Positions 732 through 64,000 of a DNA stretch of 64,000 nt are shown here, in pieces (positions within the stretch are counted from its first letter, which is position 1; the number at the start of each line of letters is the position of its first letter). The stretch comes from Cognataquiflexum nitidum. GTDB taxonomy: Bacteria; Bacteroidota; Bacteroidia; Cytophagales; Cyclobacteriaceae. The notes beneath the pieces were generated by a model. It was not told the DNA's origin. It searched no databases and saw only the letters and a list, made by a program, of their open reading frames with translations. The translations under genes were made by a program, and so were the position numbers. The stretch covers positions 1 to 64,000 of the forward strand of contig NZ_JAKZAM010000001.1 in assembly GCF_022538055.1 (NCBI RefSeq), read 5' to 3'.

Positions 732-739
732 GATTGAGG

Positions 740-907: not shown

Positions 908-917
908 AACCATTCCC

Positions 918-6968: not shown

Positions 6969-7011
6969 ATAAACAAGACGCTCCATTTGAGGCTAATTTG
7001 ATTAGTAAGGA

Positions 7012-7046
7012 GATATTGATGGATACTGGATATTTGTAGATATTGG
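7012..7046. repeat. Degenerate GATATT-type short repeat
   Basis: Several GATATT/GATACT words occur at 8-10 nt spacing after the MscS gene. A cleaner version of this kind of repeat is found at 34727-34757. No coding potential is seen. Confidence 0.35.
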
Positions 7047-7104
7047 TTTAGAATTTATCGTTTGGTTGGTTTTATTCCAAAAAATCAAACTATCAAAATT
7101 GAAA

Positions 7105-7140
7105 ACGGCTCAAAATTCATCATTTTGAGCCGTTTGTTTG
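7105..7140. terminator. Bidirectional intrinsic terminator between convergent genes
   Basis: A perfect 11-bp stem, ACGGCTCAAAA (7105-7115) with TTTTGAGCCGT (7123-7133), has a 7-nt loop, a T-rich stretch on the right and an A-rich stretch on the left. It separates the MscS gene from the convergent gene ending at 7158. Confidence 0.8.
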
Positions 7141-7157
7141 TTCTATTTCCTGTTATA

Positions 7158-7808
7158 TCAATCCTTTTTCTTCAGATCACCCCTTTTGATGGATTGGATA
7201 AATTTGGACCAAGCAAATGGGTCCATCAAAGTAAAGGGTCTTGGGCCGTAACGGTCTTGGATCTGCATGATCTGACCTTGTTGGAAATACCTCATGTTTT
7301 CATTGCCCGAAGCCGGCATTGCCTCCGCATACCTCAGGAGAGTTTCAGAACTTAGATTTCCTGTTCTATCAATCGTCATCGGTGCTTCATAATTCATCGC
7401 AAGAACCTGCTTCTTAAATTCATCTTCGGTGGGATAAGGCATCACCTCGATCTCTGCCAAAGCAATCTCATCAACTTGCATCGTAAGGATCAGGGAAATC
7501 TTGTCATCATCTACTTTTTCAGGGACTTTGAATGATTGCTTTCTCAAACCTATGAAGCTAAAAATCACACTGTCACCTTCCAATACCGGCATCGAAAAAT
7601 AGCCATACCTACCTGAACTTGTGCCTCGTCCCTTTTTTGGAACATAGACATTGACTCCCGGAACGGCATCCGTACTGTCAGCATTGAGGATAATTCCTGA
7701 AAGCTGAATTACTTTTTTTTCTCTATCTTGGGCAAAACCGTCTTCAATCCCTAAAACAAATAGGGTGAAAAAAAGGAAAACAGCTATCGGGTGTACTTTA
7801 AATTTCAA
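7158..7808 (-). CDS. Secreted carboxypeptidase-like regulatory-domain protein
   Basis: The protein has 216 residues. A signal peptide ends in EDGFAQ near residue 26. Residues about 35-105 form a carboxypeptidase D regulatory-like beta-sandwich (LSGIILNADSTDAVPGVNVY, then YGYFSM and FSFIGLR), the fold used at the N-terminus of many TonB receptors. The C-terminal half (MPYPTEDEFKKQVLAM onward) is conserved in short Cytophagales proteins of unknown role. There is no plug or barrel domain. It is expected to be periplasmic or surface-attached. It is a single gene divergent from the ArsR-type regulator at 7943, so the 134-bp gap may hold both promoters. Confidence 0.7.
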   Translation of the reverse strand: MKFKVHPIAVFLFFTLFVLGIEDGFAQDREKKVIQLSGIILNADSTDAVPGVNVYVPKKGRGTSSGRYGYFSMPVLEGDSVIFSFIGLRKQSFKVPEKVDDDKISLILTMQVDEIALAEIEVMPYPTEDEFKKQVLAMNYEAPMTIDRTGNLSSETLLRYAEAMPASGNENMRYFQQGQIMQIQDRYGPRPFTLMDPFAWSKFIQSIKRGDLKKKD

Positions 7809-7942
7809 AGCAATACGGTTTATCTTTTTGACCTGCTGAACCGAATTCAGTCTAATTAGGTTTTCTAATTTGGGTATAATATTAGCCTATTTTAGTTTCA
7901 TTTGCTTAATTTCAACCGGGTTTTATTCGTTAATTTTACTAA

Positions 7943-8326
7943 ATGCGACTTAAAAATATCAGCTTAAGTTATGGGATGAGGATTTTTAAGGCACTTTCCG
8001 AAGAGCCAAGAGTCCGTATCCTTCATCTTTTACTCCAAAACAAGGAACTGTCTATTTCTGATTTGGAGCATATATTGGACTTTACCCAGACAAAAACCAG
8101 CCGACATTTGATCTACCTCAAAAATTCCGGATTGTTGGGAAGCCGAAGGGTGGATCAATGGATTTTTTACTATATCTTGGACGAAGCCCAAGAAATCATC
8201 CAACAGATTTTTAAGTTTATCCAAAAAGACGGTAATCTCATAAGGGATCAGGAAGTTTACACCATTCTGTACTCTAACCGAGAATTAGCCATCAATAAGA
8301 TAGCGAATAATCCTTATCGCAAATAA
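7943..8326 (+). CDS. ArsR-type winged-helix transcriptional regulator
   Basis: A 127-residue protein with an HTH_5/ArsR fold: ALSEEPRVRILHLLLQNKEL, then SISDLEHILDFTQTKTSRHL as the recognition part, and a wing RRVDQWIFYYILD. No cysteine pairs of the metal-sensing type are visible, so the signal is probably not a thiophilic metal. The next gene starts 12 nt after the stop codon, so the regulator and the phosphatase are most likely one transcript. Its targets cannot be predicted. Confidence 0.8.
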   Translation: MRLKNISLSYGMRIFKALSEEPRVRILHLLLQNKELSISDLEHILDFTQTKTSRHLIYLKNSGLLGSRRVDQWIFYYILDEAQEIIQQIFKFIQKDGNLIRDQEVYTILYSNRELAINKIANNPYRK

Positions 8327-8338
8327 GTCACTTAAGTT

Positions 8339-9034
8339 TTGAAAAAATACCAACACATCTTCTTCGATCTGGACCATACCCTGTGGGATTATGATACTAA
8401 TGTCCAGGAATCACTTTCTGAGTTGTTCGACATTTATCAATTGGTCAACGTCGGCATTCCTGATTTTCAAACTTTCATTGATGCCTTTTATCAGGTCAAT
8501 TTCAAGCTTTGGGCATTGTATGACCTTGGCAAAATCGACAAACAAAACTTAAGGGAAACCCGGTTTAAGCTGATATTTGAAAAGGCAGGAGTACCGGGAA
8601 AACATGTTCCCAAAGAAATGGAAGAGGATTTTATGTACAGGACGTCCTCAAAACCTCATTTGCTTCCCTATTCCAAAGAGATTTTGGACTATTTGAGTCC
8701 AAATTACAAGATGCATATCATCACCAATGGCTTCAATGAAAGTCAGGCTAAGAAAATGCATTCCTCAGGTTTGACGCCTTACTTTGATCTTGTGGTGACT
8801 TCCGAGACAACCGGTCACAAAAAGCCTGATCCAAGGATTTTCCAATATGCGATGGATAAATTGTCTGTTAAGTCAGGGGATTGCATCATGATAGGAGATA
8901 ATCCCAACTCCGATATCCTTGGAGCTATCCGTTCCAATATCGATCAGGTCTATTTTGATCCCCACGAAAAAGGCATCGAGCATCAACCGACGCATACTAT
9001 TCGGCATTTAAAGGAATTGGAAGGGCTATTGTGA
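8339..9034 (+). CDS. YjjG-type HAD phosphatase (pyrimidine nucleotidase-like)
   Basis: This is a 231-residue HAD hydrolase. Motif I is FFDLDHTLWDYD (nucleophile Asp in DxD), motif II is ITNGF, motif III Lys is in HKKPDPRIF, and motif IV is MIGDNPNSDI. The alpha-helical cap and the DHTLWDY motif match the YjjG family, which dephosphorylates non-canonical pyrimidine nucleotides. The start is TTG at 8339, directly before KKYQHIFFDLD; no ATG lies between it and motif I. It follows the ArsR-type gene by 12 nt. The precise substrate is not established by sequence. Confidence 0.85.
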   Translation: MKKYQHIFFDLDHTLWDYDTNVQESLSELFDIYQLVNVGIPDFQTFIDAFYQVNFKLWALYDLGKIDKQNLRETRFKLIFEKAGVPGKHVPKEMEEDFMYRTSSKPHLLPYSKEILDYLSPNYKMHIITNGFNESQAKKMHSSGLTPYFDLVVTSETTGHKKPDPRIFQYAMDKLSVKSGDCIMIGDNPNSDILGAIRSNIDQVYFDPHEKGIEHQPTHTIRHLKELEGLL

Positions 9035-9038
9035 GATT

Positions 9039-9080
9039 GTATCAAGTACAAAGTATCAAGTACTATGTATCAAGATGGAG
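9039..9080. repeat. Three tandem 14-bp repeats
   Basis: GTATCAAGTACAAA, GTATCAAGTACTAT and GTATCAAGATGGAG follow one another directly, just after the stop codon at 9034. They are non-coding. Confidence 0.6.
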
Positions 9081-9213
9081 GAGCAAGAAACAAGAACGAA
9101 GTAATATAATGTTTTCTCCTATCTTCCGTAGCAGGAGCGAAGCAGATAACAATTACCACAAATACAACAAATACAACTTTTGAAATTCGGCAGGTTTTCA
9201 GGATGGTAGTCCT

Positions 9214-9221
9214 TATCTTTG
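9214..9221 (+). promoter_or_regulatory. Candidate Bacteroidetes -7 promoter element (TATCTTTG)
   Basis: TATCTTTG matches the TAnnTTTG consensus of Bacteroidetes sigma-A promoters and lies 30 nt before the start codon of the P5C dehydrogenase gene. A good -33 TTTG at 19-21 nt spacing is not evident. Confidence 0.45.
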
Positions 9222-9251
9222 CCCCTTCAGAAATCATAAACTCAAATTCAT

Positions 9252-10886
9252 ATGCTCAAAGGTTTTTTTAACGTTCCCAAGCCGGTCAACGAACCGGTAA
9301 AAAGTTATGCTCCTGGTTCTCCCGAGAGGAGCGAACTGCAGCAGACGCTGAAGGAATTCAGGTCCCAGCTTGTAGATGTGCCTATGTATATAGGAAGTGA
9401 AGAAGTGAGGACAGGGATCAAAAAATCCATGTCCCCGCCACATGACCACAAACATCTATTGGGTTTCTTCCATGAGGGAGATGCCTCTCATGTGGAGCAA
9501 GCGATCAATGCTGCTTTGGGAGCAAAAGAAGCTTGGGAATCCATGGAATGGGAGCAAAGAGCAGCGATTTTCCTCAAAGCCGCAGACCTCTTGGCAGGTC
9601 CATACCGTGCCAAAATCAATGCCGCCACTATGCTAGGACAATCCAAAAATGCTTTTCAGGCAGAAATCGATGCGGCCTGTGAGTTCATAGATTTCCTTAG
9701 GTTTAATGTGCAATACATGTCTGAAATCTATGCGCAGCAGCCGCCTGTTTCCGGTGCAGGAGTTTGGAATAGATTGGAGCAAAGACCGCTCGAAGGTTTT
9801 GTTTTTGCTTTGACCCCGTTCAATTTCACAGCCATAGCAGGAAATCTTCCTACCGCTCCGGCAATGATGGGAAACACCGTCGTATGGAAGCCAGCTTACA
9901 CGCAGATTTACTCTGCAAATGTACTGATGCAGGTTTTCAAAGAAGCAGGCGTTCCTGATGGCGTTATCAATTTGGTTTTTGTAGACGGCCCAACAGCCGG
10001 AAGCATCATTTTCAACCATCCTGATTTTGCAGGAATCCACTTTACAGGTTCCACAGGAGTATTCCAACACATCTGGAAAACGGTTGGAGAAAATATCTTT
10101 AAGTATAAATCCTATCCGAGAATAGTCGGCGAAACAGGTGGGAAAGACTTTGTTTTGGCACACAAGTCTGCCCATGCCAAAGCAGTAGCTGTCGGACTTT
10201 CTAGGGGAGCTTTTGAATATCAGGGACAGAAATGCTCTGCTGCTTCTAGGGCTTACATTCCTTCCAATATCTGGCCCGATGTCAAAAAATACCTTTTGGA
10301 GGATTTGGCTTCCATGAAAATGGGTCCTACTGAAGACTTTACCAACTTCATCAATGCGGTGATCGACGAGAAGTCTTTTGACAAAATCTCCAAATACATC
10401 GACAATGCCAAAAATGCAGAAGGTGTAGAAATCATCGCCGGCGGCCATCATGACAAATCCAAAGGTTATTTTATCCAACCGACTGTCATCCTAACCAAAG
10501 ACCCGATGTACACGACCATGTGCGAAGAAATATTCGGGCCAGTATTGACCGTCTATGTCTATCACGAAGAGCACTTTGAGGAAGCCTTGGAATTGGTCGA
10601 TCAGACCTCGCCTTATGCCTTGACAGGAGCTGTATTCTCCCAAGACAGGTATGCGATCGAATTGGCAACCAAAAAACTCAGAAATGCAGCAGGTAACTTC
10701 TATATCAATGACAAGCCGACAGGCGCGGTCGTGGGTCAACAGCCTTTTGGAGGTGCAAGGGCATCCGGTACCAATGACAAAGCCGGTTCCATGATCAATT
10801 TGCTGCGTTGGGTTTCTCCAAGAACCATCAAGGAAACGTTTGTATCCCCGGTGGACTACAGGTATCCGTTTTTAGGAAAAGATTGA
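9252..10886 (+). CDS. pruA: L-glutamate gamma-semialdehyde (1-pyrroline-5-carboxylate) dehydrogenase
   Basis: A 544-residue aldehyde dehydrogenase of the P5CDH (ALDH4A1-like) type. It oxidises glutamate semialdehyde to glutamate with NAD+, the last step of proline and ornithine breakdown. Visible are the cofactor region FALTPFNFTAIAGNLPTAPA, the general base Glu294 in GETGGKDF, and the catalytic Cys328 in GQKCSAASR. The C-terminal PTGAVVGQQPFGGARASGTN is a P5CDH hallmark. There is no proline dehydrogenase domain, so it is the monofunctional form. It stands alone; ornithine aminotransferase, which makes the same substrate, is encoded 4 kb downstream. Confidence 0.95.
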   Translation: MLKGFFNVPKPVNEPVKSYAPGSPERSELQQTLKEFRSQLVDVPMYIGSEEVRTGIKKSMSPPHDHKHLLGFFHEGDASHVEQAINAALGAKEAWESMEWEQRAAIFLKAADLLAGPYRAKINAATMLGQSKNAFQAEIDAACEFIDFLRFNVQYMSEIYAQQPPVSGAGVWNRLEQRPLEGFVFALTPFNFTAIAGNLPTAPAMMGNTVVWKPAYTQIYSANVLMQVFKEAGVPDGVINLVFVDGPTAGSIIFNHPDFAGIHFTGSTGVFQHIWKTVGENIFKYKSYPRIVGETGGKDFVLAHKSAHAKAVAVGLSRGAFEYQGQKCSAASRAYIPSNIWPDVKKYLLEDLASMKMGPTEDFTNFINAVIDEKSFDKISKYIDNAKNAEGVEIIAGGHHDKSKGYFIQPTVILTKDPMYTTMCEEIFGPVLTVYVYHEEHFEEALELVDQTSPYALTGAVFSQDRYAIELATKKLRNAAGNFYINDKPTGAVVGQQPFGGARASGTNDKAGSMINLLRWVSPRTIKETFVSPVDYRYPFLGKD

Positions 10887-52989: not shown

Positions 52990-53040
52990 TAAAAAGTTGG
53001 GTATTGTAAATTTTTGAACCTTAAAAATACCCAGAATAGG
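52990..53040 (+). repeat. Leader stem-loop shared by two paralogues, copy 1
   Basis: TGGGTATT (52998-53005) pairs with AATACCCA (53026-53033), and the sequence between them contains GTAAATTTTTGAACCTT. The same element lies at 54760-54810, upstream of the second paralogue. Confidence 0.7.
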
Positions 53041-53073
53041 TTATTTTTTATTTCAGATTGATTTCCTAAAATT

Positions 53074-54405
53074 ATGAGATTAATTAAACATGTTGTCATG
53101 AAGTTCATGAAAAATCTTTTATTTACGCTTCTGGCGTATACAGTATTTTCTTTTTCAACAGCAATAAGTGAAACAGACACAAATCAAATTAGACCTAAAT
53201 CTAATTTTGGCGAACAGATGTTGAATCCAGACATGGATCTCAATTTAGAAAATGCTATGAACTTTGTTTCGACTGAATCAATTTTTACACATTTAGGTAA
53301 GAATATGTATATGATTCTTTTGGTCTTCGTTTGCATGGCAGCTTATTCCAATCTACCAAGTGAAGATTCACCTGAAGCGCCTGTACTTTGGAAACCGGCA
53401 CGAAGCTTCGTAGAAGGTCTCACACATGCCAAAGAAATCAACGGAAAGCTTTATGCTGCATCTAAGACCAGAATATACAGTGATGCCACTATTTTTAAAG
53501 CAAATAAATATTATGACCTTAGTTATTTTTTACCGGTCGATTTCCTATACAGACTTCCTATCTCAGATCTACTCTTGGCCACCATCAACTCTGAAGAGCT
53601 TATTCTCATGCCCCATGGAAAACCGTTTGAAGAAGATGCTTTTGTGTTTAAAATGAAGGATATTGATCCTAGATTTATTGAATTCACCCAAGTAGTTTCT
53701 GGCGACCAAATAGGTATTGATACAAGAGGCAATTTGCTATTACCTTACAAATCATTAAATGTCGGAAAATCAAAATACAGCTCTAATTTCCTCTGGCTAA
53801 AGACGGGAGTCATTGACGGAAAAGTAGCAATATTTGAACAGAAACTGATTAAAGAAGAATTTTTCGATGATTGGTTAAGTATTTGGAGTCTGAAGGTTTT
53901 TGAAAATTTCATCAGGGTTACGATGGAAAATAAGACTATTGATTTCGATCTAACCGGCAGTATGGAACTGCGTTTTGAATCTTATACCAAATCCGTACAA
54001 GTAGGAAATAATATCATCACTTTTGCAAGTGAGGGATTTGAAACATTTCCGCTGATGGTTTATAGATCTGACTTTTCGGGTAAAAACCCAGAGCTGATAG
54101 GTAGCTACAACTCAAAGCAGATTTCCAGGGAAGACCGGAGACTTCTAGGAATTTTCTTTGATACTATTTCAAGTATACATGATAAAATTTTCCTATTTGG
54201 AGGGGAGTCGATTTTTCGGTTGTCCATAAATGATCAAACTATAAAACTTATCCCGCTCGATAATTTAGGTCTCATGGGTACTTCCATCACCTCTATCAAC
54301 CTAATTGACAATTCAACGGTCTTCGTTACCAATAGCAATGTAACGAGTGGGAAGAACTGCGGCGGATACTACAAACCCCTTGAAAATTTTGACAATCAAA
54401 AGTAA
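53074..54405 (+). CDS. Secreted protein, first of a paralogous pair
   Basis: 443 residues. The core from about residue 105 (LWKPARSFVEGLTHAKEING) to the C-terminus closely matches the gene at 54887-56020. The N-terminal 77 residues have no counterpart there: a first hydrophobic segment (KNLLFTLLAYTVFSFSTAI) followed by NFGEQMLNPDMDLN. A second hydrophobic segment at M78 (MYMILLVFVCMAAYSNLP) aligns with the paralogue's lipoprotein signal. A start at 53305 (M78) is a possible alternative. The core is strand-rich, propeller-like, and lacks known catalytic motifs. Function unknown. Confidence 0.6.
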   Translation: MRLIKHVVMKFMKNLLFTLLAYTVFSFSTAISETDTNQIRPKSNFGEQMLNPDMDLNLENAMNFVSTESIFTHLGKNMYMILLVFVCMAAYSNLPSEDSPEAPVLWKPARSFVEGLTHAKEINGKLYAASKTRIYSDATIFKANKYYDLSYFLPVDFLYRLPISDLLLATINSEELILMPHGKPFEEDAFVFKMKDIDPRFIEFTQVVSGDQIGIDTRGNLLLPYKSLNVGKSKYSSNFLWLKTGVIDGKVAIFEQKLIKEEFFDDWLSIWSLKVFENFIRVTMENKTIDFDLTGSMELRFESYTKSVQVGNNIITFASEGFETFPLMVYRSDFSGKNPELIGSYNSKQISREDRRLLGIFFDTISSIHDKIFLFGGESIFRLSINDQTIKLIPLDNLGLMGTSITSINLIDNSTVFVTNSNVTSGKNCGGYYKPLENFDNQK

Positions 54406-54631
54406 TCCTGATCTTGAGTAATGAAAGTTTGATCAGGAAAGTGTAAATTTTTACTGTGTTAGAATGCTTATAATTGCAAACAAAAAAATCAGACTGATAA
54501 ACTCCGGTTATTTTTTATCTTTTTCATTCTATGGTCTTTGGAATGAAAATTATTTTGTATCTACGCAATGATGCCAATAGATTTGATATCTATTTAAATT
54601 CTGTGCTTTGGATTTAAATTCACGCTTCATC

Positions 54632-54671
54632 GGTCTTCCGACTTCGTTCCGAGCTATCGGAATTCCGTCCC
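54632..54671 (-). repeat. Palindrome plus GTCGGAAGACC element
   Basis: GGTCTTCCGACTTCG then TTCCGA-GCTA-TCGGAA (54647-54662), the reverse-complement relative of the element at 28851. Confidence 0.6.
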
Positions 54672-54759
54672 AATTGTATAAGAATATAGGGTTACTGGCA
54701 AAGTAGCGGATAACCATAAAAATTATTAACCTTCCAACTTTTGACCTTTCAAGTTGAAA

Positions 54760-54810
54760 TAAAAGTTGGGTATTGTAAATTTTTGAACCTTGAAAATACC
54801 CAGTATTGGT
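54760..54810 (+). repeat. Leader stem-loop shared by two paralogues, copy 2
   Basis: TGGGTATT (54767-54774) pairs with AATACCCA (54795-54802); nearly identical to 52990-53040 including the loop. Confidence 0.7.
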
Positions 54811-54886
54811 AATTTAAATTCTTAATAATAATAATAATCATTAGTTTTAATCGTTGTAGATTAAACCCAAGACTAGGATCCGTATT

Positions 54887-56020
54887 ATGAAAAGTTCAGC
54901 TCGTTTTCCGATTCTTTTAATCTTCATTGGCATTGTTTGTTTTTTTTCCTGTGGCACATTTGAAACCCCGAAAGAAGAAGTGAATGTGTTTTGGAAACAG
55001 TCACTAAGCTTTCCGGAAGGACTTACACATGCCAAAGAAATCAACGGAAAGCTATATGCTGCGTCTAAAACCAGAATATACAGTGAGGCGGGCCTTTTTG
55101 GAATAAACAAATATTCTTATCTCAGTGCTTTTTTACCTGACAATTTCCTCTACCGGCTTCCCATCTCGGACCAACTCATGGCCACCATCAAATCCGATGA
55201 GCTTATCCTTATGCCCCTTGGAAAGCCTTTTGAAGAAGACGCCCTTGTCATTAAAATGAAGGATCTTGATCCGGGATTTAATGATTTCAAACAAATCGTT
55301 TCCGGGTATGGTGACCAGATAGGTATTGATCCAAAAGGCCATGTGCTGGTTCCTTATGGTGCACCAAAAAGTCCTGGAGTATCAAAATACACCCCTAATT
55401 TCCTTTGGCTCAAGACTGCTGTCGTTGACGGCAAAGTAGAGATATTGGAACAGAAACTGATCAAAGAGGAATTTTTCGATGGTTGGGTAAGTATTTATGG
55501 TTTCAAGGTATTTGAAAACTTCATGAGGGTCACGATCAGCAATAAGACTTTTGATTTTGATCACAGCGGAAATATGGAAGTGCGTTTTGAATCTTATACC
55601 AAATCCGTACAGGTAGGAAATGACATCATCACTTTTGTAGGAGATGGATGGGAAACATTCCCCTTGAAGGTTTACAAGTCTGACCTGTCGGGGAAAAATC
55701 CTGAGTTGATAGGTACATACAATTCCGGCCAAGTTTCCAATGAAGACAGAAGGCGAATTGGAATTTTTTTTGATAATATTTCAAGTATTAAGGACACCAT
55801 TGTCCTTCTCGAAGGGGAATCGATTTTCCGTCTTTCTATGAATGATAAAACTATCAAATTGTTTCCCCTCGACAATGTAGGCCTTATAGGTACCAGTATC
55901 ACCTCGATCAGTCTGCTTGATAATTCAACAGTCTTCGTTACCACAGGCTGCGAGGCTCTTGGGAATAACTGTAGTGGAGGATACTACAAGCCTCTTGATA
56001 AATTTTTAACTCAAAAATAA
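54887..56020 (+). CDS. Lipoprotein, second of a paralogous pair
   Basis: A 377-residue lipoprotein: signal and lipobox IVCFFSC, Cys near residue 22. The mature part matches the protein at 53074-54405 (GLTHAKEINGKLYAASKTRI is shared) along its whole core. Repeated strand patterns and GSYYKPL-type endings suggest a beta-propeller; this is an inference. The C-terminal region has two cysteines (GCEALGNNCSGG). It is followed 8 nt later by the PD40 lipoprotein, so they probably form an operon. Function unknown. Confidence 0.65.
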   Translation: MKSSARFPILLIFIGIVCFFSCGTFETPKEEVNVFWKQSLSFPEGLTHAKEINGKLYAASKTRIYSEAGLFGINKYSYLSAFLPDNFLYRLPISDQLMATIKSDELILMPLGKPFEEDALVIKMKDLDPGFNDFKQIVSGYGDQIGIDPKGHVLVPYGAPKSPGVSKYTPNFLWLKTAVVDGKVEILEQKLIKEEFFDGWVSIYGFKVFENFMRVTISNKTFDFDHSGNMEVRFESYTKSVQVGNDIITFVGDGWETFPLKVYKSDLSGKNPELIGTYNSGQVSNEDRRRIGIFFDNISSIKDTIVLLEGESIFRLSMNDKTIKLFPLDNVGLIGTSITSISLLDNSTVFVTTGCEALGNNCSGGYYKPLDKFLTQK

Positions 56021-56028
56021 CCTGCACT

Positions 56029-57048
56029 ATGAAGTATAAAAGTTTAGTTTTGATAACAATAGTACTTTTTATGACAGCTGGATGCTTTCCAAAAATCAAA
56101 TACAAAACCGGAAAATTCCCTGAGGAAGTTACTTCGTTTGATATATTGAACACCCAATATGATGAGATGAACAGTGATCTACATGTCATTGGAGGGAATT
56201 TTATAATGGTTTATTCTTCAAACTATTCAAGTTTCGGAAACCATTTTGACCTGATGGGTAAGATTATGGGATTTTCTTTTGATCAAGAAAACGGAAATTT
56301 AGGTTTTGGAGAAATGTACGATCCGGTAATTGATCATTCCAAAAAACTACGTGAGCAACTTTATCAAATCAACGACCCTTGTAACCAACGCGGGCCTTAT
56401 TCTTTTCAGGAAAGCAACGGTAATTATGTCTTTCTGTACTCCTCCGACTGTGATGGACTGAGTAAAATAGCTATGAATACCCAAGGAATTACTTCTGCAA
56501 ATTCCCGAAAAACCAATGAAAAATTGAGATTCATGGAAGAAGACAGCAATGAAATGTACCCAAGCCTTTATGGGAAGAATTTTAGGAAGACAATTGATCA
56601 TGCGGAGGAAATGAATGGGAAACCCGAGAAATTGATTTTTACTTCGGACGCAGATGGTAAATTCGATATTTATGAGGTTGATATTCCTGAGGGAGTTGTT
56701 GTTTCCGATTTTATGCAAGACAAACAAAATTTTCAACCAAGAAAATTAACAATAAACAGTTCTTCCAATGACAATGCACCTGCTGTTTTTGGTGATATTT
56801 TGGTTTTTGCTTCCGACAGACCGGGGGGATTTGGAGGATATGACCTGTATTACTCACAATTCAAAAATAGTGCGTGGACTTCTCCGGTAAACTTTGGAGA
56901 AAGAATAAACTCTGCAAGCGATGAATTCAGACCGGTGGTTTATTTTGATCATGGAAGCTTTGAAAATCTACTGATGATTTTCTCCTCCAATCGTCCGGGA
57001 GGAAAAGGGGGATTTGATCTGTATTATGTGGGGATTCCTAAGAATTGA
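56029..57048 (+). CDS. PD40/WD40-like beta-propeller lipoprotein
   Basis: A 339-residue lipoprotein (LFMTAGCFPK; Cys at about residue 19). The C-terminal half carries PD40-type repeats: FTSDADGKFDIYEVD, FASDRPGGFGGYDLYYSQF and FSSNRPGGKGGFDLYYVG, as in TolB- and OmpA-linked propellers. These bind peptidoglycan-associated or surface components. It starts 8 nt after the preceding lipoprotein gene and ends in a terminator. Confidence 0.8.
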   Translation: MKYKSLVLITIVLFMTAGCFPKIKYKTGKFPEEVTSFDILNTQYDEMNSDLHVIGGNFIMVYSSNYSSFGNHFDLMGKIMGFSFDQENGNLGFGEMYDPVIDHSKKLREQLYQINDPCNQRGPYSFQESNGNYVFLYSSDCDGLSKIAMNTQGITSANSRKTNEKLRFMEEDSNEMYPSLYGKNFRKTIDHAEEMNGKPEKLIFTSDADGKFDIYEVDIPEGVVVSDFMQDKQNFQPRKLTINSSSNDNAPAVFGDILVFASDRPGGFGGYDLYYSQFKNSAWTSPVNFGERINSASDEFRPVVYFDHGSFENLLMIFSSNRPGGKGGFDLYYVGIPKN

Positions 57049-57118: not shown

Positions 57119-57187
57119 AACTTTCCAACCTTCCAACCTTCCAACCTTCAAATTTTTCAATCTTCCAATTTTACAATCTTTCAATCT
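57119..57187. repeat. Tandem CTTCCAAC-like degenerate repeat at the murA end
   Basis: Nine or so 8-9-bp units (CTTCCAAC, CTTCAAAT, CTTCCAATT...). On the minus strand the last codons and TAA stop of murA are formed by this repeat (GAAAGATTG-TAA). Confidence 0.65.
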
Positions 57188-58475
57188 CTGCCCCAAGCGC
57201 ATTCAACCTCTTATCGATAAATTGATACCCGCGGTCGATCTGCTCGATATTGTCAATGATGGAAGTGCCTTCCGCAGAAAGTGCCGCGATCAATAACGAA
57301 ACTCCAGCTCTGATATCAGGAGAAGTCATGCGGATGCCTCTAAGTGGGTATTTTCGATCCAACCCGATGACAGTAGCCCTGTGAGGATCACAAAGAATAA
57401 TCTGTGCACCCATGTCTATCAACTTATCTACAAAGAAGAGACGGCTTTCGAACATCTTCTGATGGACCAAAACAGTTCCTTTTGCCTGTGTGGCCGTGAC
57501 CAAAATGATACTGAGCAAATCAGGCGTGAATCCCGGCCAAATCGCATCTGCGACAGTCAGGATCGAACCGTCGATGAAGGTTTCGATTTCGTAATGCTTC
57601 TGTGCGGGGATAAAAATATCATCTCCACGGAATTCCATTTTGATCCCCAACCTTTTGAAAGTATCGGGAATGATACCCAATCGATGGATTTGGGCGTCCT
57701 TGATGGTGATTTCGGATTGGGTCATGGCAGCCAGGCCAATAAATGATCCGATCTCAATCATATCCGGAAGCATGGTATGTTCTGTTCCTTTGAGGGATTT
57801 GACTCCTTCGATATGCAAAAGGTTGGAACCCACACCGGTGATTTTTGCACCCATACGGTTGAGCATATCACAAAGCTGCTGCAGGTAAGGTTCGCAGGCA
57901 GCGTTGTATATGGTTGTTTTGCCTTCAGCCATTACTGCTGCCATGACGATGTTGGCTGTTCCGGTGACGGAAGCCTCATCCAAAAGCATGTAGGCACCTT
58001 TCAGGTTTTTGCCATCGATATGAAAAATCTCTCTTTTGCTGTCGTAGTGGAATTCGGCTCCGAGTTTTTGGAAACCGTAAAAATGGGTATCCATTCTCCT
58101 ACGTCCGATTTTGTCACCTCCGGGCTTTGATAGTCTTCCATGTCCAAACCTTCCCAGAAGTGGGCCAAGGATCATCACAGAACCCCTGAGTGCAGATGCT
58201 TTCTTGAGGAAATCATCCGTATCGAGGTACTTCAGGTCAACATTATCCGCTTGAAAAGTATATGATTCGGCACCGATTTTTTCCACTTTGACACCCATGT
58301 CAGACAAAAGCTCAATGAGCTTGTTGACATCCCGGATGTCAGGGATTTTGTGGATGGTGATTTTTTCAGGGGAAAGGAGCACTGCGCAAAGGATCTGGAG
58401 TGCTTCGTTTTTTGCGCCTTGAGGGATGATTTCACCCTTGAGCTTCAGGCCGCCTTTTACTTTAAATGATGACAT
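57171..58475 (-). CDS. murA: UDP-N-acetylglucosamine 1-carboxyvinyltransferase
   Basis: A 434-residue MurA, catalysing the first committed step of peptidoglycan synthesis. The active-site loop reads SKPGGDKIGRRR: the residue equivalent to Cys115 of E. coli MurA, the fosfomycin target, is Asp121. Other marks: GAKNEALQI, RGSVMILGPLLGR and SPDIRAGVSLLIAAL. With Asp in this place the enzyme is expected to be fosfomycin-insensitive. The DUF4290 gene ends immediately before its start (0-nt gap). The stop codon lies in a tandem repeat. Confidence 0.96.
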   Translation of the reverse strand: MSSFKVKGGLKLKGEIIPQGAKNEALQILCAVLLSPEKITIHKIPDIRDVNKLIELLSDMGVKVEKIGAESYTFQADNVDLKYLDTDDFLKKASALRGSVMILGPLLGRFGHGRLSKPGGDKIGRRRMDTHFYGFQKLGAEFHYDSKREIFHIDGKNLKGAYMLLDEASVTGTANIVMAAVMAEGKTTIYNAACEPYLQQLCDMLNRMGAKITGVGSNLLHIEGVKSLKGTEHTMLPDMIEIGSFIGLAAMTQSEITIKDAQIHRLGIIPDTFKRLGIKMEFRGDDIFIPAQKHYEIETFIDGSILTVADAIWPGFTPDLLSIILVTATQAKGTVLVHQKMFESRLFFVDKLIDMGAQIILCDPHRATVIGLDRKYPLRGIRMTSPDIRAGVSLLIAALSAEGTSIIDNIEQIDRGYQFIDKRLNALGAEIERL

Positions 58476-59147
58476 TTATCTACGCTTTTTATGGCCGCCA
58501 TTGTTTCTTCTTCTTTCATTACCTCCGCTGAATTTCCTGCGGTTGGTATTGGTATTGGATTCCGGCTCGGAAGGTAATTTGAAATCTCTTCTAGTGTTGG
58601 TTTCAAAAAGTCCCATTTCTCTCACTTTCTCAAGGTCGATATGCAGTTTTCCTTTGGAAAGGGTTTTGATATCGTCTAGGATGATGCCGTCATCGAAATT
58701 CTCTCTGTTCCATGTCGAGTGAAAACTCCTCATCAGCTGACCGATATAAATGATCGCAGCTTCCTGCTCTTCATCGTCCTCGATTTCAACTGCTTTTTCG
58801 ATCAGTTTTTCAATATTTCTTCCGTAATGTTTGAATTTGATTTCTCCTTTTGGATAACCGATCGGAGCAGGTTTTTTATAAAGTAATTCCCTTTGAGGAC
58901 TTGGATAAGGTCCATCTACATCCAAAGCGAAATCAGACATGATGTGCAGGTCATCCCAAATCTTTTGGTCGTTTTCTGCCTTCATCGATGGGTTGAGCTG
59001 CTTGACCATTTCTACCAAAAGGTAGGCACTTTGGGTGCGCTTTTCCCTGTCTTCCATTTCGGAAATGTAAATGGAAAGTCGTTGGATGTTTTTTCCGTAT
59101 TCTTTCAATATGACTGAATGCTTATCGGTAATTTCTTGATTGCTCAT
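58476..59147 (-). CDS. DUF4290 protein
   Basis: A 223-residue protein with KEYGKNIQRLSIYI, MEDREKRTQSAYLLVEMVKQ and GEIKFKHYGRNIEKLIEKA, matching the DUF4290 family that in Bacteroidetes is coded just before murA. The C-terminal tail is Arg/Asn/Gly-rich and probably disordered (NERRRNNGGHKKRR). No catalytic motif is visible; a regulatory or scaffolding role in cell-wall synthesis is a guess from position alone. Confidence 0.9.
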   Translation of the reverse strand: MSNQEITDKHSVILKEYGKNIQRLSIYISEMEDREKRTQSAYLLVEMVKQLNPSMKAENDQKIWDDLHIMSDFALDVDGPYPSPQRELLYKKPAPIGYPKGEIKFKHYGRNIEKLIEKAVEIEDDEEQEAAIIYIGQLMRSFHSTWNRENFDDGIILDDIKTLSKGKLHIDLEKVREMGLFETNTRRDFKLPSEPESNTNTNRRKFSGGNERRRNNGGHKKRR

Positions 59148-59203
59148 GTTGTCTCCCGTTGGTACGATTGTTAAAGTAAAAAAACTTTTTAAGGGGGATT
59201 GGT

Positions 59204-61456
59204 CTATTCGATGATTCGAAGCTTTGCAAAGCTAAGTAATAATGTCTTCTCTCCAAAATTATCGAATTGAATGCTTGCTTTTCTGTTGATTCCTTCAGTT
59301 TCGATTTTGTTTACCAAGCCAAAACCGAATTTTGGATGCTCCACTTTGGCGCCTGCCTGAAGGTTATTGGTATTGGAGGGTTTAAAATCAGGGCTTGGCG
59401 TATGGATTTTGGCCGTGGTCATCGGTCTTTGGCTTTGGTTTTTGATTCCAACAAAACCCGATTTTCCTTCACTTGACTCATTTCTCAGTGCTCCTGAAAG
59501 CGCAGATGTCATTCTTTTGTTGACCTTGATGCACATTGGATCGACCTCCTCGAGGAAGCGGCTCGGTTCACAATTCAACAACCGGCCAAAACGATATCGT
59601 GTCAAGGCATAAGTGAGGTACAATTTGTCCATTGCTCTGGTGGAGGCTACATAAAAGAGCCTTCTTTCTTCTTCCAGATCTTCCCTGCTCTGCATCATCA
59701 TCTGCGAAGGGAAAAGGTCTTCTTCCATTCCCACGACAAAAACCTGCTTGAATTCCAATCCCTTGGAGGAGTGGATGGTCATCAAAGTGACAGCATCCGT
59801 GGTGTCTTTATTCCTGTCGTTGTCAGTCAGCAAGGCGATTTCCTGAAGGAAAGCGCCGAGACTTTTTTCTGGGTTTTCAGGATTGTCCACGTATTCTTTG
59901 ATCGCATTGAGCAATTCCTGTACGTTTTCATAGCGGTTCAGCCCTTCTATTGTTTTGTCTTCATACAGATCCTTCAGCAATCCTGACTGCTTGGCGATGC
60001 TGGAGGCTGCCTCGAAAGCGTCTTTCCTCTCTACCTCGATCCCAAAACTTTTGATCATTGTGCAGAAATCATCCACGGAATTGGCTGCGCGGCCTCCTAG
60101 AAAACTGGCAGCGTTTTGGATCACATCCCAAAGTGGGATATCATGCTCATAGGCTGCGACCAGCATTTTTTCTACTGTTGTGTCGCCGATTCCTCTTTTG
60201 GGATAATTGATGATCCGCTTGAATGCTTCCTCATCTTCATGGTTGACCACAAATCGGAGGTAGGCCAAAAGGTCTTTGATTTCTTTCCTTTGGTAAAATG
60301 ATAGTCCTCCCACAATTTTGTAGGTGATGTTCATTTTTCTCAAGGCCTCCTCAATAGACCTGGATTGGGAGTTGGTACGATAAAGCACAGCAAAGTCGCT
60401 GTTGTTGAGTTTTTTGTTGTTTTTCTCTTCGAAAATTGTGGTGGCCACCAATCTGCCTTCCTCATTATCCGAGCTGGCTTTGATCAGTTCGATCAGGTCA
60501 CCTTCGTTATTTTGGGTCCAGATGTCTTTTTTCAGCTGGGCTTTATTTTTAGCAATGATGCTGTTGGCAGCCTGTACGATATTTTTGGTGGATCGGTAGT
60601 TTTGCTCGAGTTTGACGACAAACAGATCCGGATAGTCCTTTTCAAAATTCAGGATATTCTGAATGTCTGCACCGCGAAAGGCGTAGATACTCTGCGCATC
60701 GTCACCGACCACGCAGATGTTTTGGTGGACTGCTGCGAGTTTTTTGGTGATGAGGTATTGGGAGACGTTGGTATCCTGAAACTCATCCACCATTACATAT
60801 TTAAAGCGCTGCTGGTATTTGTTGAGCACGTCTAGGTGATCTCTGAAAAGGACATTGGTATTGAAAAGCAAGTCATCAAAATCCATCGCTCCCGAGCGGA
60901 AGAGCCGCTTTTGGTAGTTTTTGTAGATTTCTCCCATGCGGGGTTTCATCGCCGCATCATCATCCGACTTGATAAATGGATCATTGAGGTAGGTTTCCCA
61001 TGCGATCAGCCTGTTTTTGGCACCAGAAATTCTCGACAGAACCGTACTTGGTTTGTACACCTTGTCATCCAGCTTCATTTCCTTGACAATGGTCCTGATC
61101 AAGGACTTGCTGTCATCGGTGTCGTAAATGGTGAAGTTGGAAGGATAGCCGATTTTGTCAGCTTCTACCCGGAGGATTTTGGCAAAAGTGGAGTGGAAAG
61201 TGCCCATCCAGGTATTGCGGGCATCGAGTCCGATGAGTTTTTCGATGCGGAGTTTCATCTCCGCAGCGGCTTTATTGGTAAAAGTCAGGGAAAGGATATT
61301 GAAAGGGTCTACTCCTTTGGCATGGATCAGGTGGGCGATCCGGTAGGTGAGTACCCTTGTCTTTCCTGAACCGGCACCTGCGATGATCATCACGGGGCCA
61401 TCTGTGTGTTCTACTGCGTCTCTTTGGGGGGGATTGAGTCCTTTTAAATAATCCAT
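59204..61456 (-). CDS. pcrA: PcrA/UvrD-type DNA helicase
   Basis: A 750-residue superfamily-1 helicase. Motif I GAGSGKTRV (residues 27-35), motif II DEFQDTNVSQY, motif III QSIYAFRGAD, motif IV EQNYRST, motif V IHSSKGLEFKQVF, and motif VI VASTRAMDKLYL are intact. The C-terminus (EHPKFGFGLVNKIETEG) has the PcrA Tudor-like domain. It unwinds DNA in repair and clears replication conflicts. It is a single gene, with a 32-bp repeat copy just upstream at 61489. Confidence 0.95.
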   Translation of the reverse strand: MDYLKGLNPPQRDAVEHTDGPVMIIAGAGSGKTRVLTYRIAHLIHAKGVDPFNILSLTFTNKAAAEMKLRIEKLIGLDARNTWMGTFHSTFAKILRVEADKIGYPSNFTIYDTDDSKSLIRTIVKEMKLDDKVYKPSTVLSRISGAKNRLIAWETYLNDPFIKSDDDAAMKPRMGEIYKNYQKRLFRSGAMDFDDLLFNTNVLFRDHLDVLNKYQQRFKYVMVDEFQDTNVSQYLITKKLAAVHQNICVVGDDAQSIYAFRGADIQNILNFEKDYPDLFVVKLEQNYRSTKNIVQAANSIIAKNKAQLKKDIWTQNNEGDLIELIKASSDNEEGRLVATTIFEEKNNKKLNNSDFAVLYRTNSQSRSIEEALRKMNITYKIVGGLSFYQRKEIKDLLAYLRFVVNHEDEEAFKRIINYPKRGIGDTTVEKMLVAAYEHDIPLWDVIQNAASFLGGRAANSVDDFCTMIKSFGIEVERKDAFEAASSIAKQSGLLKDLYEDKTIEGLNRYENVQELLNAIKEYVDNPENPEKSLGAFLQEIALLTDNDRNKDTTDAVTLMTIHSSKGLEFKQVFVVGMEEDLFPSQMMMQSREDLEEERRLFYVASTRAMDKLYLTYALTRYRFGRLLNCEPSRFLEEVDPMCIKVNKRMTSALSGALRNESSEGKSGFVGIKNQSQRPMTTAKIHTPSPDFKPSNTNNLQAGAKVEHPKFGFGLVNKIETEGINRKASIQFDNFGEKTLLLSFAKLRIIE

Positions 61457-61488
61457 GCGTCAATTTAATCCAACAAGCCTCAAAGTTA

Positions 61489-61520
61489 AGGATTTTGGAT
61501 GGGCAATGGAAATTAAGTTT
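61489..61520. repeat. 32-bp perfect direct repeat, left copy
   Basis: Identical to 63654-63685 and ending at mismatching bases on both sides. It lies 33 nt upstream of the helicase start. The two copies bracket the pair of barrel genes. Confidence 0.85.
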
Positions 61521-61604
61521 TTTGGCAATTCTTTTAATTTCAGGTGGTCTTGGAGTGGGTAGTTTGGATTTTTGTAAGGTGTGATGATTAAGTTTATTAA
61601 TATC

Positions 61605-61648
61605 AAAAAGAAGGCTTGACATAAAAATTGCTATCCTTATGTCAAGCC
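61605..61648 (-). terminator. Terminator of the barrel gene pair
   Basis: A perfect 12-bp stem (GGCTTGACATAA at 61613-61624 with TTATGTCAAGCC at 61637-61648) followed on the minus strand by a T-rich stretch, 70 nt after the stop codon at 61718. Confidence 0.75.
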
Positions 61649-61717
61649 AAAAAGCACAATTCAAGTTTGCTTTATTTAATCAATTTGAATTCAATAAAGA
61701 ATCACAAATAGATAGTT

Positions 61718-62467
61718 TCAGTACTTATCCATCCAAGGGTCTCCTTTTTTCCAGTTGGCCATTACCCCTATTTCAAGTTGAATTGAAAAATAAGGGAAAT
61801 TATCGACCGGGCTATTGGATTCTATATCTGCAAAGAAAGACTCCCAAGCATATCCCGGACCAAATGGTACTCGGTATGCGATTTTCATCCGTAATGTACC
61901 GGGAGCTTCCTCCCAAAACTGAGATACGGCAACACCAAAGCCTGTCAAAAGTCCAGCGGAGAAATGCTGCATATTGACCGATGTACCCGGATTTTGTAAC
62001 AGGCTACCGATGTCATTTTCTGAGGACTGCTTAGATGCAATCAAGTTGGTATCTGACATAGACAAGCCTACAATTGGAAAAAAGGTGAAGTATCCTTTTC
62101 TAAATAAATGATAATGCAAGAAAATATTCGCATTTAGAGGTCGTCGAAGTATTTCAGACCTAAACACTACATTGGTTGCGGTTTGACTTCCCACGGAAAA
62201 ATCAAATCCCGGCTCAAATTTTTTGATTCGATAAGCTAATCCGATCCCGTAATTCAAACTTCCTCTGGGAATATGAGGATAACCGTTTTGGACCAATAGA
62301 GAACTCATATTGCTATGTGGAGAGGTCATAAAGGAAGGAAGTATAAGAGTTAGGGTCATTCCACGGTCAAAATCTTCAAGATTTGGAGGAGTAGCGGAGA
62401 AAATGGTTTGTGCCGAAACAGCTTGATTCAGCAAGACGGCTAATAGTATTAGGATTATATTTTTCAT
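61718..62467 (-). CDS. Outer-membrane barrel protein, paralogue A
   Basis: A 249-residue protein with a signal peptide (to NQAVSAQ) and a strand-rich mature part ending YFSIQLEIGVMANWKKGDPW. It matches the neighbour 62623-63369 throughout (for example DFDRGMTLTL, YRIKKFEPGFDFS, ASKQSSENDIGSLLQNPG). Tandem duplicates of a small beta-barrel family not known to me. They lie between two copies of a 32-bp direct repeat. Confidence 0.7.
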   Translation of the reverse strand: MKNIILILLAVLLNQAVSAQTIFSATPPNLEDFDRGMTLTLILPSFMTSPHSNMSSLLVQNGYPHIPRGSLNYGIGLAYRIKKFEPGFDFSVGSQTATNVVFRSEILRRPLNANIFLHYHLFRKGYFTFFPIVGLSMSDTNLIASKQSSENDIGSLLQNPGTSVNMQHFSAGLLTGFGVAVSQFWEEAPGTLRMKIAYRVPFGPGYAWESFFADIESNSPVDNFPYFSIQLEIGVMANWKKGDPWMDKY

Positions 62468-62622
62468 AATTCCTTAGAGCATATACGGTATTTTGATGTA
62501 AAGCGATTACTTAAGTTTTCGACTGATTCAGACTGAGAAAATTTGCGTTTTCCGATCAGAGAAAAAATCAAACAAAAAAGGCGGACCGCAATCCAATGAA
62601 CCCTTTTTCCTACGTTCATATT

Positions 62623-63369
62623 CTAATACCTATCCATCCATCGGTCTCCTTTTTTCCAATTGGTCATTATTCCCATTTCAGCTTGGATAAAGAAATAAGG
62701 AAAATTGTCTACCGGGGAATTATTGAAGTTTGCAAAATTTGATTCCCAAGCTGAACCTCCATTAAAAGGAATCCTATAGGCAAATTTCATTCGTAAGATT
62801 CCGGTGGATTTCTTCCAATGCTCTGCAAAAGAAAACCCAAATCCCGTCAGAAGACCTCTTGAAAAGTGTTGGAGATTCATAGAAGACCCGGGATTTTGAA
62901 GCAGACTATTGATATCGTTTCCCGGAGATTGTTTAGATGTGATCAAATTTATATTCGAAAACGACAAACCTAAAAGTGGGAAAAAAGTAAAAGACCCCTC
63001 CCTGAATAAGTGATACTGCAAGAAAACATTAAGATTCAGTAGCCGTTTTAAAATTTCAGACTCCGTCGCCTCATTGGTTTCAATTTGATTTCCCATAGAA
63101 ATATCGAATCCGGGCTCAAATTTTTTGATTCGGTAGGCCAATCCCATCCCATAATTCACGCTGCTTCTGGAAATTTGTGGGTAGCCGTTTTGCACCAGTA
63201 CAGAATTCAAATTGCTATGCGGTGAGGTCATATATGAGGGAAACATTATTGTTAGAGTCACCCCACGGTCAAAATCTGAAACATTTAGAGGTGAAGGTGA
63301 TGATTCACTCTGAGCACTTGCACAAATTGAAATTAACAAAACGATTATTGTAAGTGATACATTTTTCAT
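62623..63369 (-). CDS. Outer-membrane barrel protein, paralogue B
   Basis: A 248-residue paralogue of 61718-62467: signal to ISICASAQ, then DFDRGVTLTI, YRIKKFEPGFDIS, TSKQSPGNDINSLLQNPGSS and the shared end GIMTNWKKGDRWMDRY. The 155-nt gap to paralogue A may hold its own promoter. Function unknown. Confidence 0.7.
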   Translation of the reverse strand: MKNVSLTIIVLLISICASAQSESSPSPLNVSDFDRGVTLTIMFPSYMTSPHSNLNSVLVQNGYPQISRSSVNYGMGLAYRIKKFEPGFDISMGNQIETNEATESEILKRLLNLNVFLQYHLFREGSFTFFPLLGLSFSNINLITSKQSPGNDINSLLQNPGSSMNLQHFSRGLLTGFGFSFAEHWKKSTGILRMKFAYRIPFNGGSAWESNFANFNNSPVDNFPYFFIQAEMGIMTNWKKGDRWMDRY

Positions 63370-63653
63370 ATTACCATACTGCTTTTTTCTGCATTTTATG
63401 ACTCTTTCTCAACTGCAGCTTATGCTTGAAAAAACAATAATATTTTTGATGTTTTCATGATTTCTAAAGCAAAGGGTTGAACAATTGAAAAGCTAAAACC
63501 CTAATGTAATAAACAGGTAGTATTTTTGAAAAGTGTTAAACTAAATAATAAATTAATTTTTTTATGCTAATGATAAAAAGTTTTTATGTTTATCTAAGCC
63601 ACTGTTGTGATTATTGAAAAAGCAGAAGAAGCAATCTCCCGATCTTCCTTTCG
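63370..63653. other. AT-rich non-coding region
   Basis: No gene is supported; it holds the likely promoter of paralogue B. Confidence 0.5.
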
Positions 63654-63685
63654 AGGATTTTGGATGGGCAATGGAAATTAAGTTT
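63654..63685. repeat. 32-bp perfect direct repeat, right copy
   Basis: Identical to 61489-61520. The last two bases overlap the TAA stop of the acyltransferase gene. Confidence 0.85.
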
Positions 63686-64000
63686 ACTTCCACCTGTTGT
63701 GGCTCCAGAGATAAATTTCGGGCTGTTCGCGGATTCCTTTTTCGGTAAGGCGGATAAATTCATCAGTGATGCTGTGGGCAGCGGCCCCGGTATATGGAGG
63801 TTCACATACCAATTGATAGGAAATGGTGTATTTCCCTCTTTTAGGCCTTTTCAGATTGACAAAGAATACTGCATAGCCATATCTTTTGGCGAGTTTTTCA
63901 GGGCCTTCAAAAAAAGCCGTTTCCCTGTTCATAAAAGAGGCGCTGTACCGGATTTCGGCATTTCCGGGTCTTTGGTCAGCCGCTAGGCCAATAATCCTCG
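63684..64000 (-). CDS. LpxL/HtrB-type lipid A acyltransferase, C-terminal part (cut by the window)
   Basis: The reading frame is open to the window edge; it starts outside. The visible part reads GLAADQRPGNAEIRY, RETAFFEGPEKLAKRYGYAVF, VCEPPYTGAAAHSITDEF and ends EIYLWSHNRWK, the typical C-terminus of the LpxL/lysophospholipid acyltransferase family in Bacteroidetes. It transfers a fatty acyl chain to lipid A or a related lipid. Its stop codon touches the 32-bp repeat. Confidence 0.88.
   Translation of the reverse strand, partial: RIIGLAADQRPGNAEIRYSASFMNRETAFFEGPEKLAKRYGYAVFFVNLKRPKRGKYTISYQLVCEPPYTGAAAHSITDEFIRLTEKGIREQPEIYLWSHNRWK

What the first reader, a model, noticed from the sequence alone, without database searches (positions are those of the whole stretch)
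61489..63685. A 32-bp perfect direct repeat brackets a two-gene barrel cassette
61489-61520 and 63654-63685 are identical over 32 bp and differ at the first base on each side. Between them lie only the two paralogous barrel genes and their terminator. Removing one copy plus the cassette would leave the acyltransferase next to the helicase. This looks like an insertion or excision scar, site-specific or by recombination, rather than chance. No integrase is present, which is unusual.
Basis: partly seen in the sequence, partly recalled or inferred. Interest (0 to 1): 0.7.

Follow-up and report, generated by a model that had tools for sequence, protein, structure and literature searches.

The report
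Gene-pair insertion with duplicated target
In one bacterium, likely an Aquiflexum, two neighbouring genes for predicted outer-membrane barrels sit in a gap that is only 62 bases long in three related species, and a 32-base piece of that gap stands on both sides of them, so they likely arrived as one insertion that doubled its landing site, a known but little-understood way in which bacteria gain genes without a visible enzyme of insertion.

Summary
In detail: 61489-61520 and 63654-63685 are identical over 32 bp, and the genome holds no third copy at up to 3 mismatches. Three of the four other genomes of the genus that the searches offered have an empty site: one 32-mer, helicase and acyltransferase 62 bp apart, no barrel genes. 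The gap here is longer by exactly cassette plus one copy (2,133 + 32 bp). The fourth, G001, has one 32-mer and, at its edge, a different 648-bp insert with a small predicted lipoprotein gene. The 32-mer is host spacer of this genus, not a site shared by other elements: no match in the other 385 of 390 family genomes or in viral contigs. Both copies agree with each other and differ from all four relatives. [quoted passage not shown] How the ends were joined is unknown: no integrase in the cassette, no Ku found in the genome, no plasmid or phage relative of the first barrel (the second was not searched there). A related species has a second case (123 bp); a barrel locus in another genus has no such repeat.

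The parts
61489..61520 (+). Left copy R1 of the 32-bp direct repeat; keeps the junction with the helicase side seen in the relatives
   Evidence: single copy with the same left neighbour in G001-G004
63654..63685 (+). Right copy R2 of the 32-bp direct repeat; keeps the junction with the acyltransferase seen in G002-G004 and overlaps its stop codon by 2 bases
61521..63653 (.). Inserted cassette, 2,133 bp, G+C 0.366 against 0.449 for window 57171-61488 to its left
   Evidence: absent from the locus in G001-G004; G+C; in 145 other genomes only partial matches to barrel genes of G064 and G079 and five short matches of 25-61 bp
61718..62467 (-). First barrel gene, 249 aa, signal-like N terminus, predicted 8-stranded outer-membrane barrel
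   Evidence: no Pfam match at E up to 1
62623..63369 (-). Second barrel gene, 248 aa, 64% identical to the first
   Evidence: no Pfam match; 91% identical to database protein P0009
61613..61648 (-). Terminator-like hairpin downstream of the first barrel gene, inside the cassette
   Evidence: (I8); consensus match only (3 found, 2.3 expected in shuffles)
61481..61488 (-). TAnnTTTG box abutting R1, possible -7 element of the helicase promoter (consensus recalled)
   Evidence: pattern at about the same place in 8 of 20 relatives, about 30-40 bases further out in 2, not there in the other 10; inference
59204..61456 (-). UvrD/PcrA-type helicase, left flank
   Evidence: PF00580, PF13361, PF21196
63684..64000 (-). 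Lipid A type acyltransferase, right flank; the gene runs on to 64517 of the contig
   Evidence: PF03279; full gene

Best explanation
A 2,133-bp cassette with two tandem genes for predicted outer-membrane barrels stands between a helicase and an acyltransferase gene, flanked on both sides by the same 32 bp that occur once in the four other genomes of the genus examined, and it likely arose as one insertion with long target duplication, probably by recombination of incoming DNA rather than by an integrase of its own. Shown: the empty site in three genomes, the exact length sum (cassette plus one copy), the absence of barrel genes from all four other genus genomes, and the identity of the two copies with each other but with none of the four relatives. 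Inferred: incoming DNA with the barrel pair was joined into the spacer, either where a staggered break was filled in or where copying switched to the foreign DNA and came back 32 bases behind where it had left; either way 32 bases of host spacer are written twice. Such a join leaves the acyltransferase stop codon and the likely helicase promoter region whole, so it would be tolerated. Also inferred: the cassette could spread between strains by ordinary homologous recombination in the flanking genes, and could be lost cleanly by exchange or slippage between the two copies.
For: Empty site with one copy in G002, G003, G004. No barrel gene in the whole genomes of G001-G004. Both copies read alike and differ from the single copy of G001 at 1, G003 at 1, G002 at 3 and G004 at 4 positions, as expected if one is a copy of the other made in this lineage. 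The 32-mer was found nowhere else: own genome 2 places; 5 of 390 family genomes, all of this genus; exact match (one base left open) in 1 record of genome contigs, Aquiflexum sp. TKW24L; 0 viral contigs. No inverted repeat joins the two ends of the cassette. The first barrel protein has no relative on 72,556 plasmid and 50,697 phage records. The spacer takes other DNA: G001 has a different 648-bp insert starting at the right edge of its 32-mer, and its acyltransferase gene is mosaic, 93-95% to this genome over the first 180 nt, about 62% over the next 600, in a region where its nearest relative changes. A second near-identical target duplication, 123 bp, stands in G002.
Against: The joining step leaves no diagnostic trace beyond the duplication. 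No Ku gene was found in the own genome, so Ku-dependent joining of a staggered break has no support. G001's insert has no second 32-mer, so the two inserts did not arise in the same way. No close donor of G001's acyltransferase part was found (best other match 70% in 118 genomes), and fast evolution of that gene is an alternative. A barrel gene in G122 also lies in a stretch about 1 kb longer than in G025 (direction unknown) but has no flanking repeat of 12 bp or more, so barrel genes do not always travel with a target duplication. A recombinase acting from elsewhere is not excluded.
Confidence: 0.55

Rival explanations
1. A tyrosine recombinase or transposase supplied from elsewhere in the cell inserted the cassette, and the 32 bp are its attachment core or target duplication; the cassette is a passenger.
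For: Clean direct repeats at a gene's 3' end are typical of integrase sites (general knowledge); G001 has a different insert at the same edge.
Against: The 32-mer was found in no place outside this one spacer; no inverted repeat at the ends; G001's insert carries no second copy; 32 bp is longer than usual transposon duplications (recalled). The own genome was not searched for recombinases.
Confidence: 0.2
2. A circle that carried the barrel pair and its own copy of the 32-mer integrated by a single crossover within the 32 bp.
For: Gives exactly this structure. The 123-bp case in G002 has the same form, and its two copies differ at 3 of 123 positions, so they need not be copies of one another made at the insertion.
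Against: Here both copies are identical and differ from all four relatives, so a foreign origin of one copy has no support. 32 bp is near the lower limit for RecA-dependent exchange (about 30 bp, as quoted in PMC2884548 section 14). In G002 the differing positions do not settle which copy is foreign: the left copy agrees with G004 and G000 at two, the right at one.
Confidence: 0.17
3. The cassette and repeat pair are ancestral and the relatives lost them by recombination between the copies.
For: Loss between the copies would leave exactly the empty site seen.
Against: Needs loss in each of the other lineages; no barrel sequence was found at the locus in any of 20 relatives nor anywhere in G001-G004.
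Confidence: 0.06
4. Assembly artefact or contamination.
For: Draft genome of 83 contigs.
Against: The cassette lies inside a 287,776-base contig with flanks that are collinear with the genus on both sides; a database protein from another source is 91% identical to the second barrel.
Confidence: 0.02

Closest known systems
Insertion with long target duplication (Nobusato et al. 2000, Helicobacter pylori; not read, seen as described in passages of PMC1643837, PMC3031569 and PMC4978471)
   Same: Whole genes inserted, flanking sequence duplicated in the occupied genome, duplication long and variable (32 bp here, 123 bp in G002).
   Different: Cargo is a pair of predicted outer-membrane barrels, not restriction-modification genes; the comparison here is between species.
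Minimal mobile element (Neisseria; definition read in a passage of PMC3082526)
   Same: Two conserved genes with different whole-gene cassettes, or none, between them; mosaic flanking gene in G001.
   Different: Defined by entry through homologous recombination, with no direct repeat in the definition; here only two different cassettes in five genomes are known.
Small variable segments flanked by direct repeats (Touzain et al. 2010, PMC2884548; passages and section 14 read)
   Same: Short variable segment with direct repeats at its base and an empty locus in other genomes; 10-18% of segments there are flanked by repeats, 66-94% of these under 30 bp.
   Different: 32 bp is longer than most; the paper discusses deletion between repeats, here insertion is the better reading.
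Homology-facilitated illegitimate recombination (start of the abstract of PMC3240628 in a search listing; section 14 of PMC2884548)
   Same: Would join foreign DNA using one homologous end, as may have happened in G001.
   Different: Not shown in this genus; a duplicated target is not named as its mark in what I read.

Membership tests
Insertion with long target duplication | Empty relative has one copy, occupied genome has two copies flanking the insert | tested here: met
   G002, G003, G004 one copy; own genome two
Insertion with long target duplication | Duplication is long and variable | tested here: inconclusive
   32 bp here and 123 bp in G002; two sites only, and 32 bp is modest
Insertion with long target duplication | Frequently associated with restriction-modification genes (described as frequent, not required) | tested here: not met
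   Barrel genes without Pfam match
Minimal mobile element | Different whole-gene cassettes between two conserved genes | tested here: met
   Barrel pair in G000, predicted lipoprotein gene in G001, none in G002-G004
Minimal mobile element | Incorporated through homologous recombination | tested here: inconclusive
   G001 acyltransferase mosaic and mosaic ancestry of the region; no donor found; for G000 itself no clear tract
Integrase-borne element | Integrase gene in the element | tested here: not met
   The only frames of 60 codons or more lying wholly between the copies are the two barrel genes and an overlapping 112-codon frame
Integrase-borne element | Attachment core recurring with other elements or carriers | tested here: not met
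Transposon | Terminal inverted repeats | tested here: not met
   No inverted pair of 12 bp or more joins the two ends

The most novel reading that the evidence does not exclude
Cyclobacteriaceae acquire small gene cassettes by a recurrent, integrase-free insertion process that duplicates a variable stretch of the landing site at gene 3' ends (32 bp around a barrel pair here, 123 bp around a RES-domain cassette in a related species), so that both neighbouring genes stay whole and the cassette stays removable through the repeats.
Probability: 0.15. Interest if true: 0.55.

Novelty: new member of a known kind. Interest (0 to 1): 0.3.

Why it matters
It is a clean example, with empty sites in related species, of gene gain with a doubled target and no visible enzyme. 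Events of this form were described in Helicobacter pylori; the passages I read name the pattern but do not settle how the ends are joined. A spacer that is empty, occupied, and occupied differently within five genomes is a good place to test how such cassettes enter and leave. The barrel family itself is small (32 proteins found) and the two members here match no Pfam family.

Tried and rejected
Integrase attachment site or phage core: not favoured, because the 32-mer was found only in this spacer. Ku-dependent end joining: no Ku found in the own genome (the same search rang in 1 of 14 control genomes, Bacillus subtilis). Barrel genes as plasmid or phage cargo: no match for the first barrel; the second was not searched there. 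Barrel loci in five other genomes: no exact flanking repeat of 12 bp or more within 1.2 kb in four of five; in G121 three tandem barrel genes are flanked by pieces of a longer repeat, not followed. Empty-site comparison of other barrel loci: for G079 no match in G139 left of the barrel gene; for G122 the neighbours on both sides are collinear in G025 and the stretch with the barrel gene is about 1 kb longer in G122, without a flanking repeat, a result against a general rule. Donor of G001's acyltransferase part or insert: none found. Rfam search of 61400-63800: nothing at E up to 0.1. The sigma-70 scan found fewer sites than shuffles (5 against a mean of 7.8) and was not used. Paper searches: nothing of use; listings. 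Papers: passages of PMC2884548 (and its section 14), PMC5361080 (not used), PMC3082526, PMC1643837, PMC3031569, PMC4978471, PMC2869330 (Arabidopsis, not used); Nobusato 2000 not read; PMC2853133 not held.

Full report
WHAT WAS CHECKED. The repeat is real. AGGATTTTGGATGGGCAATGGAAATTAAGTTT stands at 61489-61520 and 63654-63685, identical and not extendable. None of 100 shuffles of the window gave a match at up to 3 mismatches, the own genome holds only these two places, and 150 random boundary pairs at the same distance gave at most 12 bp. The first 284 kb of the contig hold 16 other exact direct repeats of 25 bp or more. Most fall into groups with a shared spacing, as tandem duplications do; I looked only at those at 52992-55581 (gene array) and at 755-880 (cluster of palindromic repeats). 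The 32-mer is not part of a longer similar pair.

THE ANATOMY. On the minus strand, from right to left: lipid A type acyltransferase (ends 63684), R2, 284 bp of leader, second barrel gene (62623-63369), first barrel gene (61718-62467), hairpin (61613-61648), R1, helicase (starts 61456). The helicase has UvrD N, UvrD C and PcrA tudor domains. The barrel proteins have no Pfam match at E up to 1. AlphaFold2 on an alignment of 23 sequences, the query included, gives an N-terminal helix and eight long strands, mean pLDDT 75.8, with residues 205-221 under 50. Foldseek ranks small outer-membrane barrels first, OmpA, Ail, NspA and OmpX among the best twelve; the first-ranked has TM 0.53 by query length and 9% identity. 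So 'outer-membrane barrel' is a prediction. The cassette has G+C 0.366 against 0.449 for the stretch to its left.

THE EMPTY SITE. The helicase protein was searched in 59 genomes, and DNA upstream of it was taken from 20 relatives, among them the four other genomes of the genus that the searches offered. In G002, G003 and G004 the helicase start and the acyltransferase stop are 62 bp apart with one 32-mer. Here the distance is 2,227 bp; the difference of 2,165 is the cassette (2,133) plus one 32-mer. G001 has one 32-mer and then, at its right edge, 648 bp of other DNA with a 155-codon frame that looks like a lipoprotein gene (no Pfam match), then the acyltransferase. Of the 20 relatives, 9 have the acyltransferase next to the helicase; in the fetched stretch of the other 11 it was not found. 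No barrel sequence was found in any of the 20 stretches. Outside the genus the spacer varies in length without a frame of 80 codons wholly inside it in my lists (for example about 0.87 kb in G035).

WHERE THE 32-MER COMES FROM. At up to 3 mismatches it is in 5 of 390 family genomes, all of this genus, and twice only here. One record of genome contigs holds it exactly with one base left open, Aquiflexum sp. TKW24L (that tool may leave out the own record); its contig length equals that of the G003 contig, so the genus is very likely Aquiflexum, family Cyclobacteriaceae. Viral contigs: none. The two copies are the same at every base and differ from G001 at position 20, from G003 at 19, from G002 at 1, 11 and 19, and from G004 at 1, 10, 15 and 19. 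That fits a copy made within this lineage. Caution: over the compared stretches G001 is nearer to G004 (90.4%) than to the own genome (86.7%), so the base shared with G001 alone at position 19 may reflect local recombination.

WHERE THE BARRELS COME FROM. Of 195 genomes 13, own genome included, have a relative of the first barrel at E up to 0.001; none of G001-G004 does. The better ones (G064, G122, G079, G121, G133) lie among other genes; in their reading-frame lists I saw no helicase or acyltransferase neighbour (by eye). In G122 the barrel gene lies in a stretch about 1 kb longer than in G025, with collinear neighbours, but without a flanking exact repeat of 12 bp. A profile search of 5.8 billion proteins found 32, the query itself included; the three whose source gives an organism are Mongoliibacter, Cecembia and Nitritalea, all Cyclobacteriaceae. 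Tandem copies recur: three in a row in G121, and two pairs of database proteins share the same longest contig length (P0008/P0016, P0012/P0028), which suggests but does not prove pairs. P0009, on a 1.3-kb contig of another source, is 91% identical to the second barrel. Of the two barrels only the first was searched on plasmids and phages: no match at E up to 1e-5.

THE SURROUNDINGS ARE A RECOMBINATION ZONE. G001's acyltransferase gene is 93-95% identical to ours for its first 180 nt, then 48-73% per 60-nt window for 600 nt, then 96% over the last 54 nt; the end of the gene is also alike in G025 and G005, so that last rise may be constraint. In 500-bp windows the nearest relative of G001 changes: G003 at 93-97% against G004 at 81-83% in four windows between 53.5 and 56 kb, but G004 at 96.5-98.4% against G003 at 81-92% in four windows from 67.2 to 69.2 kb. 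So exchange between species has likely occurred here. Fast evolution of the acyltransferase is a second possible cause of its divergence: G004 too is only 74%, and no close donor of the G001 form was found in 118 genomes.

HOW COMMON ARE SUCH EVENTS. In contig stretches of five genomes (284, 200, 100, 334 and 400 kb) 43 pairwise rows, which I group by hand into 25 loci (same genome, left edges within 300 bp), show an insertion of 200 bp or more against a closed or nearly closed site. Some of these are deletions in the other genome or gene arrays. Flanking copies longer than 12 bp and at least 95% alike are seen in two: ours (32 of 32), and G002, where 2,673 bp stand at the 3' end of a DNA polymerase III alpha type gene with its last 123 bp on both sides, 120 of 123 alike (domains of the own-genome homologue). 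That insert encodes a RES-domain protein (PF08808, just over its cut-off) and three frames without Pfam match, and begins and ends with short palindromic repeats like those beside an IS200-type transposase gene at the same place in our window.

MECHANISM. Shown: presence of the cassette only here among five genus genomes, and a doubled 32-bp target. Best inferred: insertion in this lineage. Not shown: how the ends were joined. A filled-in staggered break or a template switch that returns 32 bases behind its departure point both give this result. Ku was not found. A recombinase acting in trans, or a single crossover with a circle that carried the 32-mer, cannot be excluded. Later loss by exchange between the copies is expected to be rare but precise; this is inference.

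COMPARISON WITH WHAT IS KNOWN. Passages of PMC1643837, PMC3031569 and PMC4978471 describe 'insertion with long target duplication' in Helicobacter pylori (Nobusato et al. 2000, not read); this locus has that form, with other cargo and a modest length. A passage of PMC3082526 defines minimal mobile elements: different whole-gene cassettes between two conserved genes, brought in by homologous recombination; the first half is met, the second is open. PMC2884548 (passages and section 14) reports that 10-18% of small variable segments in three species are flanked by direct repeats, most under 30 bp. So the finding is sound but of a known kind.

Noticed in passing
L153 16699-19617 (G002:C6): A 2.7-kb insert with a RES-domain protein gene at the 3' end of a DNA polymerase III alpha type gene, with the gene's last 123 bp on both sides (120 of 123 alike) and short palindromic repeats at the insert's ends.
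   Followed up: partly
window 177-917: IS200-type (PF01797) transposase gene beside clustered palindromic repeats, directly downstream of a DNA polymerase III alpha type gene (918-3866); looks like a REP-associated transposase (name recalled).
   Followed up: partly
L033 2315-2962 (G001): A different 648-bp insert with a predicted lipoprotein gene at the edge of the single 32-mer; in 145 other genomes only matches of 24-32 bp.
   Followed up: partly
window 52992-57048: Array of related genes (two tested, no Pfam match) whose copy number differs between the species; a 31-bp exact repeat in leader DNA and large identity shifts between G001, G003 and G004.
   Followed up: partly
window 63684-64000 (gene to 64517 of the contig): The acyltransferase is far more diverged within the genus (70-90% protein identity to ours) than its neighbours helicase, sigma factor, gmk-like and nadD-like genes (87-99.5%).
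   Followed up: partly
L078 (G133) and L074 (G064) around the barrel genes: Barrel homologues stand near small lipoprotein-like frames and large proteins with similar N termini in both genomes, perhaps toxin and immunity-like loci; no Pfam match for those tested.
   Followed up: no
L077 (G121) 6796-10412: Three tandem barrel genes are flanked by a repeat of 72 bp and shorter pieces that may be a dispersed family.
   Followed up: no
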